Virus record (IMG/VR): IMGVR_UViG_3300023074_000001
Coordinates: 62,001-126,000 of that record
From: a virus
Strand: one strand, 5' to 3'
Length of the DNA: 64,000 nt
Under the pieces are notes generated by a model. The model searched no databases. It worked only from the letters and a program-made list of their open reading frames with translations, and was not told the origin of the DNA. Made by a program: the position numbers and the translations under genes. Below, piece after piece: positions 7,730 to 60,300 of the stretch; within the stretch, counting starts at the first letter, position 1; every line of letters starts with the position of its first letter.

Positions 7730-7758
7730 TTGACAGTGCTTGGTTGCCCTGGTAGTGT
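7730..7758 (+). promoter_or_regulatory. Promoter TTGACA-17-TAGTGT overlapping an inverted repeat
   Basis: -35 7730-7735, -10 7753-7758. TGCTTGGTTGCCCTG (7737-7751, the spacer) is repeated inverted and perfect at 7768-7782, so the mRNA leader cannot include both arms; as DNA it is a 15-bp operator-like palindrome. Confidence 0.75.
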
Positions 7759-7801
7759 TCTTCACATCAGGGCAACCAAGCACTTAGCGAGAGGCAAGAA
7801 A

Positions 7802-31342: not shown

Positions 31343-31555
31343 GTTTTCAGGAATACCACGCCTGTTCAGTTCTGCATCGATAGCTAGAGCAAACCATAAA
31401 GTAGTCTGTCCTGCTTGTGACGGAGGAGCCGCACCCTTTTCTCCTGCCGTATGAAATGTGTTGTTATCAAGGGATTCAGCAACTTTATCGAATCCCTTGA
31501 TAACATTGTTCCATGTAGTAATCAGTGTTGCTGTATCAGTATTGATAAAGTTCAT
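31292..31555 (-). CDS. Small protein overlapping the fibre gene end
   Basis: 87 residues. Helical (TLITTWNNVIKGFDKVAESL; AGQTTLWFALAIDAELNRRG). Its 3' end overlaps the fibre gene by 51 bases on the opposite strand, and its start overlaps 31536. Looks like a real protein by composition. Function unknown. Confidence 0.55.
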   Translation of the reverse strand: MNFINTDTATLITTWNNVIKGFDKVAESLDNNTFHTAGEKGAAPPSQAGQTTLWFALAIDAELNRRGIPENLRTSVGINNKNSRPRR

Positions 31556-40170: not shown

Positions 40171-40704
40171 GTGTTAACACAAGGCGATGACGAGCTGATT
40201 CTGCACCTAGCAGGATGCTCACTTGCGCGTACACCCGGGAAAAACAACTGGGTTGAGGAAGACGCCGTAGGTGGTCTTCCAGAATACATTTGTCGTATTG
40301 CTAGAGCTGTTCACCGCGATGGAAGTCATTCCATTTCTCAGTCCATTGCTATTGCAGTAGGCAGAGTTAAAACATGGGCTCGTGGTGGAGGCGGAGTAAC
40401 CGCTAAAACTCGTGCGCAAGCAGCAAAGGCATTAGCTCAATGGGAATCTAAGAAGAAAGCAGCAAAATTAGACAACAAGGTAAAGACTTCTGATTCTAGT
40501 ACAATCGATACTGCCCTGACAGATCATCAGCTAGAGATGGCGGGGCTCATTCCATGCACTGAGAAAACTAATCGTAGTTTGCTGGAAAATGTCAAATTAG
40601 CTTATGAATTAAAAGAAGAAAAACTAGCCATTTTAACTTCTCTGGCAGACAAGCCTCACCTGCTGGCGTTATCAAAACAACAATTAACTGAGGGCTCGCA
40701 ATGA
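40171..40704 (+). CDS. Conserved actinophage packaging-region protein
   Basis: 177 residues from GTG 40171 behind AAGGAG. Residues about 35-95 (YICRIARAVHRDGSHSISQS, IAIAVGRVKTWARGGGGVTA) follow a pattern common in actinophages (IA..i...GhS.S.AIa.Ai..vk.WA.G...V...tqA.AakAvA.WE). Often next to terminase or capsid genes; a DNA-binding or small-terminase role is possible. Confidence 0.6.
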   Translation: MLTQGDDELILHLAGCSLARTPGKNNWVEEDAVGGLPEYICRIARAVHRDGSHSISQSIAIAVGRVKTWARGGGGVTAKTRAQAAKALAQWESKKKAAKLDNKVKTSDSSTIDTALTDHQLEMAGLIPCTEKTNRSLLENVKLAYELKEEKLAILTSLADKPHLLALSKQQLTEGSQ

Positions 40705-42530
40705 GCCTCTCTGATCTACTGGTCGGAGCATTCGATGACAACCCTAAGTCAGGACTTGATGACATCTTTGCCGAGGAACCAGTTAGTCTAGATATTTTTG
40801 TCAGAGATAAGAAGTTCATGGGTGCAGGAGATGCGTGGGCATTATCTCCTGTGCAATTTGAGGCTGTAAAGTATGCTGAACGAATTTTCTATCCTGATCT
40901 TTATCCTTTGATGGGAGAATACTTTGATCCTTACTGGGCTGAACCTATCAGAATGGTTAACTTCGTTAATCTTCAGTGGGGAAAGGGCTCAGGTAAGGGT
41001 CACGTCTGTAGAACTATTTCTCTTCGTGTAGCTTATTTACTTCTGTGCCTGCGTTCTCCTCAGGAATATTTTGGTATGCCAGCTCAGGACTCTATTCACC
41101 TACTTAATGTTGCTATGAATGCACAGCAGGCACAAAGAGCATTCTTCGATCCTGTAGAAAAACTAGTACGCACCTCTCCATGGTTTAGAGATAAGGCTGC
41201 ACCTACTCGCGGCGCTATTGTTTATGCTAAAAACATCGAAGCTATTTCAGGTCACTCAGAAGCAGAATCTCAGGAAGGTCTTAACCTTCTTCTAGGTGTA
41301 GCTGACGAGGTTGATGGATTCAAGTCAAAGGAGGAGGTAAGAGGAAATACTACAGGAAGGGTTCCGCAGAATACTGTAGAGGGTATTCTAGATATGATGA
41401 GAACATCTTCTTCTACACGTTTTCCTGTAACATTTAAGAACGTACGTATCTCCTACCCTAGGTACCTTGGTTCCGCAATTCAGCGTTTAACTCAGCAGTC
41501 TAGAGACGACATCGAGAAGAGAGGCGAGAAGTCTCGTCACTATGTATCTGGCCCCCTACCTACCTGGGTTGTCAACCCGAACTTCAAGAGATTCGAAAAG
41601 GTTTCTGTGCCTGGCACTGATGAATTGGTACCGGAGATTTATCGTGAGGATTATGAAGAAGATGTTTCTATGGCGAAGGCTAAGTATGAGTGTAAGCCAT
41701 CAAAGGCATCTAACCCATTCTTCCGTAATGAGTTTCTTGTTCGTAGATCCTTTACGCCAACATTACATCAGCCTGTAGAAATTCAATACTATAAGCAAGG
41801 CAACAGTTGGGAAGTTAAATATCACTTCTCTGATGATTTAAAGCCCATCAAGGGTGCTCAATATGCTATGCACGGTGATTTAGCTGTAACCGCTGACCGT
41901 GCTGGAATAGCTATGGCTCACGTTGTACGCAAGGAGGAGTTCGAGTCCACCGTAACATTAGAAAATGGTGAAACTACTTCTATCAGAGAGATGCGTCCTA
42001 TTGTTAAGGTAGACTTTGTTTTCAGCTTCGAATCAGCTAAGGGTGAAAACCCTCCACGTGAGATCCAGATTCGCTGGGCACGTGAATTGGCTTATGAGCT
42101 GAAAAAGAGGGGGTTCAGGATAAAGCGATTTACCTTCGATGGATTCGAGTCACGCGACTCTATGCAAATTCTAGAGAAGTCTGGAATCGAATCAAGTAAG
42201 GTATCTACGGATAGGTCTAATGAGCCCTGGAGAAACCTGATGGATGTTATGTACGATGGCAGGCTTATTGCTCAGCATAGGGATCTTCTGGTAGATGAAT
42301 TGCTAGGTTTGACTATTCTTCCGAACGGTAAAGTTGACCATCCTAGAATGGGATCTAAAGATGAAGCTGATGCATTAGCTTGTGCAGTTTTTGGAGCTGT
42401 TGAGCAAGGTGGACGAGAAAATGAAGCCGGAGAAACAGCTTTTTATACTCCAGCACAGTTTTTTATGGGTCCAAGAGTAGAATTACCTATGGGTATGTCA
42501 CATACTTTGATGCATCAACAAGAAATTTGA
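40701..42530 (+). CDS. Terminase large subunit
   Basis: 609 residues, start overlapping 40171's stop. ATPase: Walker A GKGSGKG (94-100), Walker B LLLGVADEVD (195-204). The C-terminal nuclease has ALACAV late and acids in HGDLAVTADRAG and FTFDGFESRD. Packs DNA into the prohead. A perfect 15-bp hairpin follows its stop by one base. Confidence 0.9.
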   Translation: MSLSDLLVGAFDDNPKSGLDDIFAEEPVSLDIFVRDKKFMGAGDAWALSPVQFEAVKYAERIFYPDLYPLMGEYFDPYWAEPIRMVNFVNLQWGKGSGKGHVCRTISLRVAYLLLCLRSPQEYFGMPAQDSIHLLNVAMNAQQAQRAFFDPVEKLVRTSPWFRDKAAPTRGAIVYAKNIEAISGHSEAESQEGLNLLLGVADEVDGFKSKEEVRGNTTGRVPQNTVEGILDMMRTSSSTRFPVTFKNVRISYPRYLGSAIQRLTQQSRDDIEKRGEKSRHYVSGPLPTWVVNPNFKRFEKVSVPGTDELVPEIYREDYEEDVSMAKAKYECKPSKASNPFFRNEFLVRRSFTPTLHQPVEIQYYKQGNSWEVKYHFSDDLKPIKGAQYAMHGDLAVTADRAGIAMAHVVRKEEFESTVTLENGETTSIREMRPIVKVDFVFSFESAKGENPPREIQIRWARELAYELKKRGFRIKRFTFDGFESRDSMQILEKSGIESSKVSTDRSNEPWRNLMDVMYDGRLIAQHRDLLVDELLGLTILPNGKVDHPRMGSKDEADALACAVFGAVEQGGRENEAGETAFYTPAQFFMGPRVELPMGMSHTLMHQQEI

Positions 42531-42531
42531 G

Positions 42532-42574
42532 TTTCCTCCTGCCGATGATTAAAAAAGAAATCGGCAGGAGGAAA
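42532..42574 (+). promoter_or_regulatory. 15-bp hairpin hiding the portal ribosome site
   Basis: TTTCCTCCTGCCGAT (42532-42546) is the exact inverse of 42560-42574, which contains AGGAGG, the ribosome site of the portal ATG at 42577. It starts one base beyond the terminase stop. Confidence 0.85.
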
Positions 42575-42576
42575 AC

Positions 42577-44361
42577 ATGGCAAGAGACGACATGGCAACA
42601 CCTAAACCTCGTCCTCTAATAGAGCGAGGCTTTAGTGACTACATGCCTTTCACGGAACCTTATGAAGGTTCTCATTTAGTTTATAAACCATCTGAGGTTA
42701 GTATTGACCAATTGGTCAGAATGCGACAGACAGATGGTCAGGCACGCGCATTGTATCGATTAGTAACACTTCCTATTAGGGCAGCATTGCAGAATGCTAC
42801 ATTCGTACCCGCAGATAATGTAGAGGGCGGCGAGGAGGAAGCTGAGTTTGTCGATCAATTATTCAACCTTCCTCCTAATGCTGGTGGAATGAGTGTGCCC
42901 TTTACTCGCGTAGTAGCTCAGATGCTTCAGGCAATCTTTGATGGTTACGCTCCTTTTGAAATGGTTTATTTCCAGCCCGCAATTGGGCCGTTAAAGGGTA
43001 AGTGGACCCTGAAGAAGATGAACTACTTACCAGCTAACACAGTAAAGTTTTTAGTAACTGAGGATGGTAGCTTTGATGGATTCAGACAGATTACTCAAAA
43101 GCCCGGCGGTAAGATCCTTGATGTTAAGATTCCTAGAGATGCTTGTGTATATTATGCCGCCCAAGAGGAAGAAAACCGTTTCTATGGGTTATCTTATTTC
43201 CAAAGTGCGTACTATCATTACGACAAGAAAGTTAAACTCTACTACTTAATGCATCTGGCTGCACAGCGTTCTGCCGTAGGAACCCGTGTCGGAACGGTCC
43301 CTGAGGATCACTCAACAGATGAATTAAATGCTTTCCGTGCAGGTCTATCTGACTTAGGTGTAGCTCAGTGGATGACAAAGCCTGAGGGTTATGAGGTGGA
43401 GTTGCTTAAGGAAGGTGGTTCATTCGACTTCTTGTCTTATATTAATCATCACAATTCTCAAATGTCTAAATCTATTCTTGCTGCATTCTTTGATGAAAAC
43501 CAGGGTACAGGTGGAGATGCATCCTTAGTAGATTTTGGTAAGCAGACTGACTCCTTGTTCGTCATGATGCTCCAGACTATTATGACAGAAATTGCTTCTA
43601 TCATAAATCATTACATCATTCCTCGCTTCGTAGACTGGAATTACAACTCCAGTAAGTATCCTGAGTTTCGTTGGGGACCATTCACCGACGACCAAAAAGA
43701 TGCTATTCAAGATGTCTTCAAGGCTATTGCTGGCATTCAGGGTGGAAACTTCACCAAGGAGTTTGCTCGTGAAATCGAGAAGAAGGTTTCTTCCGAGTTT
43801 GGTCTTGAAATTGATTATGAAACCATCGAAGAGGAGGAGAAGGCAGCTGAAATGGCGTCTGCCGTAGATGCTGGAGGGGAGTTATCTCCTGAGGGTGAAA
43901 TTTCTCCAGAGAATACTATTCCGACAGAGTTCTTACCGGAAGGATTCGCCTTGTCTAATGTTGAGTTAGCAGGAATCCGTAAAGTTAATTCACAAGAAGG
44001 TGTTCGTCGTTATGGTTTACCCATTGGAACTCCGCTAGGTACAGGCCAAGGAGGAGCACCACAGCCTAGAAGTTCTTCGATAGCTCCAGCTAAGGGAACT
44101 ATTCAGAAATCAAGTGACCCGAGAGTTTCACAAGGCAAGGATACTACTCCAGTAAAGGGTAAGGCTGAGGAGAAAGAAGCTGTTCAAAGAATTCTGACAC
44201 ACCCTAGTCCAAAACTGAAGAACGCTAAGGTTCTTGTTTACTCTAATGGTACTGTGCAGATCCAATTCCCTGACGGAACTAAATCTGCAAAAATAGCTAT
44301 TGACTGGAGACTGTTCCGCTCTAAGGGTTGGACAGCCTCTATTACCAGGGAGAAAGATTAA
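42577..44361 (+). CDS. Portal protein, DUF935/Mu gp29-like
   Basis: 594 residues. Segments VRMRQTDGQARALYRLVTLP, IRAALQNATF, EDACVYYAAQ-type core and FQSAYYHYDKKVKLYYLMHL follow the DUF935 portal pattern. The last 170 residues (from EGVRRYGLPIGTP) are a disordered linker and a small domain. Forms the dodecamer through which DNA passes. Translation is probably controlled by the hairpin in front. Confidence 0.85.
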   Translation: MARDDMATPKPRPLIERGFSDYMPFTEPYEGSHLVYKPSEVSIDQLVRMRQTDGQARALYRLVTLPIRAALQNATFVPADNVEGGEEEAEFVDQLFNLPPNAGGMSVPFTRVVAQMLQAIFDGYAPFEMVYFQPAIGPLKGKWTLKKMNYLPANTVKFLVTEDGSFDGFRQITQKPGGKILDVKIPRDACVYYAAQEEENRFYGLSYFQSAYYHYDKKVKLYYLMHLAAQRSAVGTRVGTVPEDHSTDELNAFRAGLSDLGVAQWMTKPEGYEVELLKEGGSFDFLSYINHHNSQMSKSILAAFFDENQGTGGDASLVDFGKQTDSLFVMMLQTIMTEIASIINHYIIPRFVDWNYNSSKYPEFRWGPFTDDQKDAIQDVFKAIAGIQGGNFTKEFAREIEKKVSSEFGLEIDYETIEEEEKAAEMASAVDAGGELSPEGEISPENTIPTEFLPEGFALSNVELAGIRKVNSQEGVRRYGLPIGTPLGTGQGGAPQPRSSSIAPAKGTIQKSSDPRVSQGKDTTPVKGKAEEKEAVQRILTHPSPKLKNAKVLVYSNGTVQIQFPDGTKSAKIAIDWRLFRSKGWTASITREKD

Positions 44362-46274: not shown

Positions 46275-46304
46275 AAAACCACTTCCAATTGGAAGTGGTT
46301 TTTT
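46275..46304 (+). terminator. Intrinsic terminator
   Basis: AAAACCACTTCC pairs with 46291-46302 around AATT and leads into T-run. Confidence 0.9.
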
Positions 46305-52447: not shown

Positions 52448-52978
52448 ATGAGTTTAGTGCCACCTACAGTAATAGATTTCTCTACCTTTACAGGTAGGGC
52501 TAGTAATACTTTTGGCCCATTTGCGTATGAGGCACTAACTCAGGCAACTTTACTATTTTATCTCGCCTCAGGTATCGAGGAATACCCAGAAGATTTACAG
52601 TTAGCTAGACTTGCAAAATACGGAATACTTGATATGGCTGACAAAATTTACTTGAGTCAGCCATACAAGGAAGCTTCTATTTCTCCCTTCCAATCAGAGA
52701 CTATAGGATCATATTCCTACAGCAGGTTAACTCAAGCTGTGAAAAAGGGAGACTCTACTGGTGTTATGTGGTTTGATATGGCAGTAAACAAACTTAAGGC
52801 CGGTGGCACAGGAATAGGTGCTTCAGGTTCTATTCAAGGTATGGAGTGGGATGGGATTGAACATTCTGCTGAAGGGCGTAATAGAATTTCTGGTGGTGGC
52901 TTTAGTAGAGACAGATTTAGAAACTCTTGGGATATTGATACCATAGAAGAAGTAGTCCATCACCACCCTATTGTTTAA
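52448..52978 (+). CDS. Head-tail connector
   Basis: 176 residues. Helical N-domain (ALTQATLLFYLASGIEEYPE, ...LAKYGILDMADKIYL) and a flexible C-part, as in head completion adaptors. Position between head and tail genes supports this. Confidence 0.65.
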   Translation: MSLVPPTVIDFSTFTGRASNTFGPFAYEALTQATLLFYLASGIEEYPEDLQLARLAKYGILDMADKIYLSQPYKEASISPFQSETIGSYSYSRLTQAVKKGDSTGVMWFDMAVNKLKAGGTGIGASGSIQGMEWDGIEHSAEGRNRISGGGFSRDRFRNSWDIDTIEEVVHHHPIV

Positions 52979-56355: not shown

Positions 56356-56901
56356 ATGGCAAAAGCAGCATCTCAAAAAGACGTAGAAGTAATAATTTAT
56401 GATGGAGAAGTAGTCACTCTAGAGTCAGGTACTCAAGTAAGGCTACTTCCTCTCAAGGCTCGTCAATTCTTTAAACTTCTTCGTATTGTTACACACGGCG
56501 CTAGTGGTTTACTTCTTAATGTAAAGTTCTCAGGTGACGATACCCCTGAGGAGTTTGGCGCTAAGCTAGCTGCGGTACTGGGTATGGCTATTCCCGATGC
56601 AGCAGAAGAAGTTTTCGATTTCCTTCTCTCTATGGTTGAACCTGTTGAGTTCAAGACGGGTAGGAAACTTACCAAAGAAGAGAAGGAAAAGAACGAGAAA
56701 CTTAATGAGGATCTATTCTATGAATTAGACAATCCTGAGCTAGAAGATGTTGTTACTCTTCTCGAAGCTATCGTAAAGCGAGAAGCAGAGGATCTTCAAG
56801 CATTGGGAAAACGTCTAATGTCTCTGTTCAATCTAGCGAACAAGACAGGTCAAATTCCAGAGGAAATGATCGAGAAGAAGGAAGTAGCCTCAGCAACGTA
56901 A
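56356..56901 (+). CDS. Tail assembly chaperone G
   Basis: 181 residues. Mixed fold (EVIIYDGEVVTLESGTQVRL..., AARQFFKLL), acidic end. Two-protein chaperone of long-tailed phages, made alone or fused to the next frame through a slippery site at 56805. Holds the tape measure during tube assembly. Confidence 0.8.
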   Translation: MAKAASQKDVEVIIYDGEVVTLESGTQVRLLPLKARQFFKLLRIVTHGASGLLLNVKFSGDDTPEEFGAKLAAVLGMAIPDAAEEVFDFLLSMVEPVEFKTGRKLTKEEKEKNEKLNEDLFYELDNPELEDVVTLLEAIVKREAEDLQALGKRLMSLFNLANKTGQIPEEMIEKKEVASAT

Positions 56902-57359
56902 TTCCTAGCATTCCAGGATTAGATCTAGTCGGACCTATTTCAAGAGTATTTCATCTCATCAGTTCAACGTATGGTTGGACTGATGAGATGATTCTTGAAT
57001 ACACGTTGAAACGTATACGTCAAATTATTGCGGTCATCTCTGAAGATAAAATTGCCCGCAGTAAAGAGGAAAAACTAATGCTATCCTGGCAAACAAGAAG
57101 TTTAGCCATGGTTATGGCTGCGTCAGGAGGAAATCCCAGCGAGGACGTTATGAAGTTTGCTGCTAACTTGACGATAGATAATGAAGAATACCAAGCATTT
57201 AATAATGTAGCAGAAATACAAAATACGCCTAAGCCTCCTGTTCACGCAATTACGCAGGAGGAAGAAGCTGAAAAAAACTTTAATAATGCTGCGGATAAGA
57301 ACAATCTCGAAATGATGGGATTGTTTGGTATGAAGTTAGCAGAAGGTAAGCCAGGTTAA
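56356..57359 (+). CDS. Tail assembly chaperone GT, -1 frameshift fusion
   Basis: The slippery heptamer GGGAAAA (56805-56811) is in the right phase: G GGA AAA. After a -1 slip the frame is open from 56811 to 57359, giving 152 + 182 = 334 residues. The second part includes TLKRIRQIIAVISEDKIARS. The ATG at 56988 has no good ribosome site, so the downstream part is made only as a fusion. Confidence 0.8.
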
Positions 57360-57382: not shown

Positions 57383-60300
57383 ATGACATCCCCCGGTGGA
57401 GAACACATCAGTCGTTATCGTGCTCTTGGTGAGTTTGATAATCTTATCCGTGAAGCTAATAAAGCTAAGCGAGCGCTTCGTGAGCTACGAGAAGAAGAAG
57501 CTAAGTTAAACGCACAATCTTTATCTGATGATAAAAAGATAACAGCATCTAAGCTGGAGCGTGCAAAAGCTGAAAAGTCTAGTACTGATTCTGCTAAAAA
57601 AGCTACTGCTGATTTAAATCGTGGCGACCAAGCAGGTAAGTCTGGTGAGGATGCCGGAACATCATATACTCGTGGCCTTGGTAGAGGTATTGATAAAGGC
57701 AGGCAGTCACCAGAGAATCGTCGCTTTCTAGATGCAGCAACTCAAGCATTAAAGGGTGCCTTTGAAAAAGCAGGTACTGACTCTGGTACATCGTTTCAAG
57801 GAAACTTCGGGAAAGCATTAAGAGGTTCAGGCGGAAGCTCATCACCTCTTAATGCTGCTATGACTCAGAAGCTTCGTGAGTTACGTGAGCAAGCTGGTCC
57901 TGCTGGTCAGGATACAGGTAATCGTTATGTTATGGGTTTCGCTAGTAAAATTAGAGACCTCAATAACATTCTTCCACTATTAGGTCAAGATAAGCTTGAC
58001 CTAAATGTAGACATAACTGATGCACAACAATCGATGAAGGCGCTTGAGTTTGAGCTTAAGCGTCTATCTCATGTTACCGCTGAACCTCGTGTTCGTATTG
58101 ACGCTAGTCGCGCACTAGATAATTTACGTGCCATCCAAAAGCTGTTCAAGGATGAAGTAGCTGAGGACATCATCAAGGAGTCAAGACGTATTCAAGATGA
58201 GCTAAAGGTTATCGACAATCTGCCATCTGGTAAGGCTTTTAAGTTCTGGACTCTTACTGCACTTAGCGATATGAGTCGAGTATTCAAGGAAGCCGACAGA
58301 GGCACCTCGGTATTCCAAAGGCTACGTCAGTCTATTGCTGCATCAGGTTCAGGTGGCGGCGGCAATTATTTCAAGACTTTGATTTCTGGGTTCGATGATC
58401 TTTCTGGAGCCAGTTCCAGAGTTCTTCAGAGATTAGGTCGAGTTTCCGGTGAACTCTACCGTATGCCTGGAGTTATTGCTGTACTTCTATCTACTATTCC
58501 CGCATTAATTAGCGGTCTAGGTGGTCTGGTAGGTGCCGCAGGTAGTGTAGGTAGCGCATTAGGTTCATTGTCTGGATTCCTTGCGGCAGCACCTGGTCTG
58601 TCATTTGCATTTATTGGATCAATAGGCGCTATGTCCGCAACTATAGGTGGGCTATCTGATGTATTCAAGAATGCACAGAGGGCAGCCGACGCAGAAGCTG
58701 AGGCAAAAGAAAAGTCCCGACTTGGTACAGAGAAGGCTCTTACAGCTGCGCAGAAATATAAACTAAGTCTTGAATCTTTATCACCTGCTACTGAAGAGGT
58801 AACCTTAGCTCTTGTAAAGTTTTCTGAGAAATACGGAGAAGTTCAAAAAAGAGTTGGCGAAAACTTCTTCAAGGAGATTGCAAAAGATACAGGAAAGCTT
58901 AATGAAGTACTTCCTATTTTAGAAAAGTTCTTTGGCAAATCCGCTACTGCTTTAGGTAAGTTAGCTGACGAAGCTTTAAGAATGATTACTTCAGGACCGT
59001 TTAAGCGTGATTTCGGTATCATCGCCGAGAATAATGCTGGATATATTCAAGATATGGGTAAAGCAGGTTTGTCTCTTGTTACTTCTTTGAAGAACATAGC
59101 TATTGCTGCTGGACCGTTTACTGCTTGGGTAACAGGAGCCTTGAGAGAAGGTGCGGAGACCTTTGCTGATTGGTCAGCTCAGGCACGCTCAGATGGAACT
59201 ATTCAAGAATTCCTAGACGAAACTACAGAGTCTGGAAAGATTCTATGGCAGATTCTTAAGGATCTAGGTAATGTTATTAACTCATTTTTCCAGGCGACAG
59301 TAGACGAAGGACAGAGTTATCTTCAAAATCTACAGGACATCACTAGTGGTTGGGCAGATGTAGCTAAGGCGCAAGAGGGGGCTAATTCTCCTCTACGCAC
59401 CTGGCTAGTACAAATACGCCCAATTATGGCATCTTTGGGTGAATTAATTTCTGCATTGGCTAAGGGTATTGGTGGACTAGCCAGTAATCAAGACAATATC
59501 AAGACCATGATTGATTTGCTTGATACGTTGCGTACGAAGGTTCTTCCACCTATTCTTGATATTCTTCAGCATCTTAATGATTCTGGAATTGCTGTTACGG
59601 TAACAGAAGCTATTGGAACATTGCTAGAAGCTATTGCTAAATTCTTGGATAGCGGCGCTACTACAGCGTTGTCTGTCTTTGTTACAGTACTAGCTAATTT
59701 TGCTGAACTAATTTTTAGTTTTGCTAGTTTACCCGTCATCAGTGATATTCTAGGTGGTTTAGCTTCAGCTATTGCTACCCTAGCTGCGGTATCTATTGTG
59801 GCAAGATTTACAGGTCTATTCAAGCTGTGGGACTTCTTTACATGGATGGTACGTAATAAGGGTAACCTCTCTGGAGCATTCGCTGATGCCGCACGTGGAG
59901 CCGCCGGATTATCTCAAGTTGGTGGACAACAGGCGTTACCTTCAAGGGTTCCTTCACCAGTAACTAGTGTCGGGTCAGACGACTTTATTGTTAATCAGAC
60001 TAGGGCTACCGAAAAGCTAGGCGAGGCATCTCGCAGGGCTTCTGTTCAGACAGGTGCATTCAGTAGAACATTATCAGCTATTAGAGTTGCTGGCAATACA
60101 GCTCGTACGGCGCTATCTAGTCTATCAGGATTTATAGGCGGCCCCTGGGGTATTGCTTTAATTGGAGCAACGGTTGCTATTAGTGCAATTACCAGTAAGC
60201 TATCTGATAACAAGAGAGAAGCCGAAGATACTAAGACTGCATTCTTAGCCTTGAAGGGTGCCTACGGAGAGTTAAAAGAAGGTAATACGGAAAGTATCAG

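What the first reader, a model, noticed from the sequence alone, without database searches (positions are those of the whole stretch)
42531..42580. Portal ribosome site locked in a perfect 15-bp hairpin
The AGGAGG of the portal gene lies in the right arm of a perfect hairpin that starts one base beyond the terminase stop. Translation should be blocked unless ribosomes ending the terminase gene open the stem, or a protein or RNA does. This would tie portal dose to terminase translation; portal must be made in exact amounts.
Basis: partly seen in the sequence, partly recalled or inferred. Interest (0 to 1): 0.75.

Follow-up and report, generated by a model that had tools for sequence, protein, structure and literature searches.

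The report
Hairpin gate on phage portal gene
In a group of related environmental phages, a conserved RNA hairpin between the terminase and portal genes hides the portal gene's ribosome site, and its position suggests that only a ribosome finishing terminase opens it; the principle is known, but its presence at this gene pair was not reported in the papers searched.

Summary
It is not chance, and portal has the least accessible SD of 88 starts scored. Hairpins as such are common here (44 perfect ones in 134 kb), but this is the only perfect one found over an SD in this genome. It recurs at the same junction in all nine distinct clade members examined. Flanking silent sites are nearly randomised (mean identity 0.49, chance 0.38), while the arms stay about 91% identical. 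A model of the element finds one copy per genome and none in outgroups. Three outgroups instead overlap terminase and portal by 11-23 nt. Modelling shows that a ribosome at the terminase stop would free the SD in all nine. Best reading: an SD-sequestering hairpin that couples portal to terminase translation, inferred and not measured. Unexplained: the inner stem and A-rich loop are conserved in sequence, unlike a nearby terminator whose stem is replaced between relatives, so a bound protein is a live rival. 'Exact dose' is speculation. One relative's SD is only partly hidden.

The parts
40701..42530 (+). terminase large subunit gene (upstream partner)
   Evidence: PHROG terminase large subunit E 4e-8; 48% identical to the annotated terminase of Microbacterium phage Magritte
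42528..42530 (+). terminase stop codon TGA
42532..42546 (+). left arm: outer half TTTCCTCCT pairs with the SD side, inner half GCCGAT is the inner stem
   Evidence: CTGCCGAT identical in all nine sequences
42547..42559 (+). A-rich loop; AAAAAG core in 8 of 9 sequences
42560..42574 (+). right arm holding AGGAGG
42566..42571 (+). portal Shine-Dalgarno AGGAGG, 5 nt before ATG
42577..44361 (+). portal protein gene
   Evidence: Pfam Portal_Mu E 5.8e-33, PHROG portal E 1.9e-36

Best explanation
It is an intercistronic RNA hairpin that hides the portal Shine-Dalgarno sequence. On terminase-portal mRNA the stem keeps 30S subunits off portal (inferred from folding). When a ribosome reaches the terminase stop, its leading edge covers the first 9-10 nt downstream, which is the anti-SD half of the left arm. 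AGGAGG is released while the inner GCCGA/TCGGC stem usually stays folded (computed). A new 30S subunit, or less likely the terminating one, then starts portal (inferred). Portal output would thus follow terminase translation. In relatives outside the clade the same end is plausibly reached by overlapping the two genes.
For: Lowest SD accessibility of 88 starts. Present at the same junction in nine distinct sequences with nearly saturated silent sites, stop-to-start gap 45-49 nt and SD-to-ATG 5-9 nt. In-silico masking of 9-10 nt after the stop raises mean SD exposure from about 0-0.14 to 0.58-1.0 in eight members and from 0.48 to 0.75-0.82 in L007. One copy per genome, none in outgroups. Outgroups overlap the genes by 11, 20 and 23 nt, and in two of them AAGGAGGTG lies inside terminase codons. 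No promoter-like site or T-run at the junction. Departures from Watson-Crick pairing are mostly G-U rather than A-C, as expected of a + strand RNA. Precedents with similar geometry: rpmI-rplT at +52 nt, MS2 coat-lysis, f1 VII-IX (PMC12548453).
Against: No expression data. Covariation is not significant (score 30/500 shuffles, pairs changed on both sides 184/500). L007 keeps the inner stem but its SD (AGAAGG) is only half hidden. The inner stem and loop are conserved in sequence beyond what pairing needs, so coupling may not be the whole function. Structure just after a stop codon has been found to lower coupling (Chemla et al., cited in PMC12548453), and same-ribosome reinitiation fades by +20 to +38 nt (PMC10666635).
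Confidence: 0.6

Rival explanations
1. Operator for an RNA-binding protein (portal, terminase or another phage protein) that recognises the invariant inner stem and A-rich loop and represses or licenses portal translation, like T4 gp43 or gp32 autogenous control.
For: Left-arm CTGCCGAT is identical in nine sequences even where its partner has changed (L006, L002), and the loop keeps an A-tract in 8 of 9. At a nearby terminator locus (46275) the stem sequence is replaced wholesale between relatives while the hairpin persists, so structure alone does not freeze sequence in this clade.
Against: No binder known; one copy only; SD and anti-SD needs explain about half of the conserved bases; L007 lacks the A-tract.
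Confidence: 0.2
2. Read-through block of the T4 gene e type: transcripts from upstream cannot be translated, but transcripts from a promoter inside the hairpin lack the left arm and can.
For: T4 e and I-TevI work this way (PMC3014915); other hairpins in this phage do bracket TTGACA-N17-TAGAGT promoters.
Against: No sigma70-like promoter in or near this hairpin; the left arm plus loop motif is not repeated clearly above chance elsewhere.
Confidence: 0.07
3. RNA processing or stability element (RNase III-like cut or decay barrier) that separates terminase and portal mRNA segments.
For: Stable perfect stem between two genes of one apparent operon.
Against: Does not explain why the SD lies in the stem or the nearly fixed 45-49 nt spacing.
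Confidence: 0.08
4. DNA-level site (packaging signal, protein operator) that happens to overlap the SD.
For: Strong sequence conservation, location beside terminase, one copy per genome.
Against: Mismatches are mostly G-T and rarely A-C; the right arm drifts in L006 and L002 while the left does not.
Confidence: 0.05

Closest known systems
E. coli rpmI-rplT translational coupling (spacing +52 nt)
   Same: Downstream RBS closed by RNA structure that upstream translation opens; spacing large enough for a second ribosome (PMC12548453)
   Different: Ribosomal protein genes with demonstrated coupling; here phage packaging genes, a simple hairpin lying wholly between the two genes, and coupling not measured
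Phage f1 VII-IX and MS2 coat-lysis coupling
   Same: Inhibitory structure at the second gene opened by ribosomes on the first (PMC12548453)
   Different: Those genes overlap; here they are separated by 46 nt filled by the hairpin
T4 e / soc / 49 / I-TevI and Aeh1 mobE SD-sequestering hairpins
   Same: Phage SD buried in a stem (PMC3014915)
   Different: In T4 e late transcripts from internal promoters lack the 5' arm; no such promoter seen here, and the stem here abuts a stop codon
T4 gene 26-25 intercistronic hairpin
   Same: Conserved intercistronic hairpin limited to one phage clade and absent from distant relatives (PMC3014915)
   Different: That hairpin lies between SD and AUG and enhances initiation; here the SD is inside the stem
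Magritte-type overlapping terminase-portal genes
   Same: Homologous gene pair, plausibly coupled
   Different: 23-nt overlap with AAGGAGGTG inside terminase and no hairpin of this kind

Membership tests
SD-sequestering hairpin coupled to upstream translation (RNA-unfolding model) | SD or start codon of downstream gene is inside a stable helix | tested here: met
   P(SD unpaired) about 0, -27 kcal/mol; only partial in L007
SD-sequestering hairpin coupled to upstream translation (RNA-unfolding model) | Helix lies where an upstream translating or terminating ribosome would disrupt it | tested here: met
   Core stem begins 1-5 nt after the stop in nine sequences; masking 9-10 nt exposes the SD
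SD-sequestering hairpin coupled to upstream translation (RNA-unfolding model) | Downstream translation depends on upstream translation and becomes independent when the helix is broken | not testable with these tools
   needs reporter experiments
SD-sequestering hairpin coupled to upstream translation (RNA-unfolding model) | Base pairing supported by compensatory evolution | tested here: inconclusive
   88% of cells paired, three pairs with double changes, not above shuffles
T4 gene e-type read-through block | Promoter within or just after the 5' arm | tested here: not met
   no promoter-like site at 42450-42580 on the + strand; sigma70 type only, a phage-specific promoter cannot be excluded
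Intrinsic terminator | Stem followed by U-run | tested here: not met
   followed by ACATGG; not in terminator list
Rfam RNA families | Match at gathering score | tested here: not met
   only tRNAs in the window

The most novel reading that the evidence does not exclude
The hairpin is the operator of a phage assembly protein (terminase or portal itself) that reads the invariant inner stem and A-rich loop, so that ribosome-driven opening and protein binding together set portal supply to packaging motors.
Probability: 0.12. Interest if true: 0.7.

Novelty: new member of a known kind. Interest (0 to 1): 0.5.

Why it matters
Portal occupies one capsid vertex as a 12-mer and is needed in small amounts next to the capsid protein (general knowledge). 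How phages set its level is rarely known. A conserved, clade-wide RNA gate at this junction, where distant relatives overlap the genes instead, would give a compact and testable example of translation-level control of head assembly. The sequence-frozen inner stem offers a lead to a possible new RNA-binding partner.

Tried and rejected
Read-through fusion of terminase and portal: gap lengths 45-49 nt vary modulo 3. Small ORF from the ATG in the loop: not kept in relatives. Repeat family or mobile element: one copy per genome, model finds no others. Late-promoter motif in left arm plus loop: near-matches elsewhere are only modestly above shuffled controls and show no pattern. Terminator: no T-run. 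Extra clade members by DNA pattern: the non-clade contigs of the last scan, scored with the model, gave only chance-level matches. Genome-contig scan with terminase found no relatives. Distant portal loci (about 30% identity): many had no callable SD start; where one could be called most SDs were fairly open, except L021 (0.07 free) with a much weaker fold. Literature searches gave no report of a portal SD hairpin, open-access papers only.

Full report
Observation. The window holds, at 42532-42574, a perfect 15-bp inverted repeat with a 13-nt loop. One base (42531) separates it from the terminase stop (42528-42530), and its right arm contains AGGAGG, 5 nt before the portal ATG at 42577. The RNA folds at -27.1 kcal/mol, z = -6.9, and the same stem forms in 251 nt of context. 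Among 88 scored starts in the window, portal has the least accessible SD. No repeat of this length arose in 100 Markov surrogates of the window. The upstream gene is a terminase large subunit (weak PHROG hit; 48% identical to the annotated terminase of phage Magritte). The downstream gene is a Mu-type portal (Pfam E 5.8e-33).

Background to be fair about. This phage (a 135.7-kb viral record, G000) carries 44 perfect inverted repeats with arms >=10 and loops of 3-20 in 134 kb, nearly half of them inside predicted ORFs. A T4 stretch of 49 kb has 3. A perfect hairpin is therefore not rare here. A perfect hairpin over an SD is: in G000 and in the stretches read from G002, G003, G005 and G006 the portal one is the only case my scan found.

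Conservation. Portal and terminase searches of IMG/VR gave about ten contigs that carry the junction, nine distinct sequences with the window. All have the hairpin in the same place. The gap is 45-49 nt, the core stem starts 1-5 nt after the stop, and the SD ends 5-9 nt before ATG. Portal identity to the window is 76-89%. Four-fold silent sites are on average 49% identical between pairs against 38% expected at random, while the arms average 91-92%. The arms are thus under strong selection. A covariance model finds one copy per genome at this junction and none in Magritte, L012, L014 or T4.

How it is conserved. Pairing is kept in 88% of cells, with G-U variants in L006 and L008 and one clear C-G to U-A double change at an SD pair in L007. 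This is not above shuffles, because the stem hardly varies. Mismatches are mostly G-U, rarely A-C, which suits a + strand RNA better than a DNA palindrome, although base composition also favours this. The left-arm segment CTGCCGAT is identical in all nine, even where the right arm has drifted (L006, L002), and the loop keeps an A-tract in eight. As an internal control, at the terminator at 46275 four genomes keep a perfect hairpin with an AATT loop but wholly different stem sequences. Structure alone therefore does not freeze sequence in these phages. The SD and its complement explain the outer half of the stem. The inner half and the loop need another reason, which I cannot name.

Mechanism. 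If a ribosome terminating on terminase covers 9-10 nt past the stop, the outer anti-SD half of the left arm is taken. The computed SD exposure rises from about 0-0.14 to 0.58-1.0 in eight members, and from 0.48 to 0.75-0.82 in L007, usually with the inner stem left folded. The +46 spacing resembles rpmI-rplT (+52), where a second ribosome can load while the first still holds the structure open (PMC12548453). Same-ribosome reinitiation is less likely, since it is nearly lost at +20 to +38 nt (PMC10666635). Supporting this, the outgroups overlap the same genes: Magritte -23 nt and L014 -20 nt with AAGGAGGTG inside terminase, L012 -11 nt without a canonical SD. The two arrangements look like alternative ways to tie the genes together; which came first is inferred, not shown. 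Shown: sequence, fold, conservation, geometry. Inferred: repression, opening by the ribosome, coupling, and any dosage role.

Rivals. A protein operator is the main one, because of the frozen inner stem. A T4 gene e-type read-through block is disfavoured, since no sigma70-like promoter lies in the hairpin. Terminator, read-through fusion and small-ORF readings are rejected. RNA processing and DNA-level roles remain possible at low odds.

Novelty. The principle is well known in bacteria and phages. A hairpin gate at a terminase-portal junction was not found in the open-access papers searched. I file it as a new member of a known kind, with function untested.

Noticed in passing
L197 15385-15438 (G000:C1:35385-35438), L196 15655-15712 and 16842-16896, window 7730-7784: Perfect hairpins interleaved with TTGAC(A)-N17/18-TAGAGT or TAGTGT promoters: the left arm lies in the promoter spacer or -10 and the right arm downstream, in two cases followed by a T-run. 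Only read-through transcripts could form the full hairpin, so these look like terminators or blocks that spare the local promoter.
   Followed up: partly
G000 whole record; relative G001: Unusual density of perfect inverted repeats (44 in 134 kb; 37 in 108 kb of G001), many with loops of 9-20 nt and nearly half inside ORFs, e.g. window 31462-31505 (16-bp arms) and 57814-57856 in the tape-measure gene; most of those checked are not conserved in relatives. Selection or a mutational template-switch origin not tested.
   Followed up: partly
window 46275-46302: Terminator whose stem sequence is entirely different in each of four genomes while a perfect stem and AATT loop persist.
   Followed up: yes
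L211 15746-15797 (G001), - strand: In a relative, a perfect 16-bp hairpin whose right arm covers a possible SD (AGAGAGG) and whose left arm lies in the spacer of TTGACG-N17-TAGATT: a T4 gene e-like arrangement.
   Followed up: no
window 56356-57110: Gene upstream of the tape-measure gene ends at 56901, and another frame continues to about 57110 (SNVIPSIPGLDLVGPIS...): probable tail assembly chaperone pair with programmed frameshift.
   Followed up: partly
window 52633-52665: 10-bp inverted repeat TATGGCTGAC/GTCAGCCATA inside an ORF, conserved in four relatives.
   Followed up: partly
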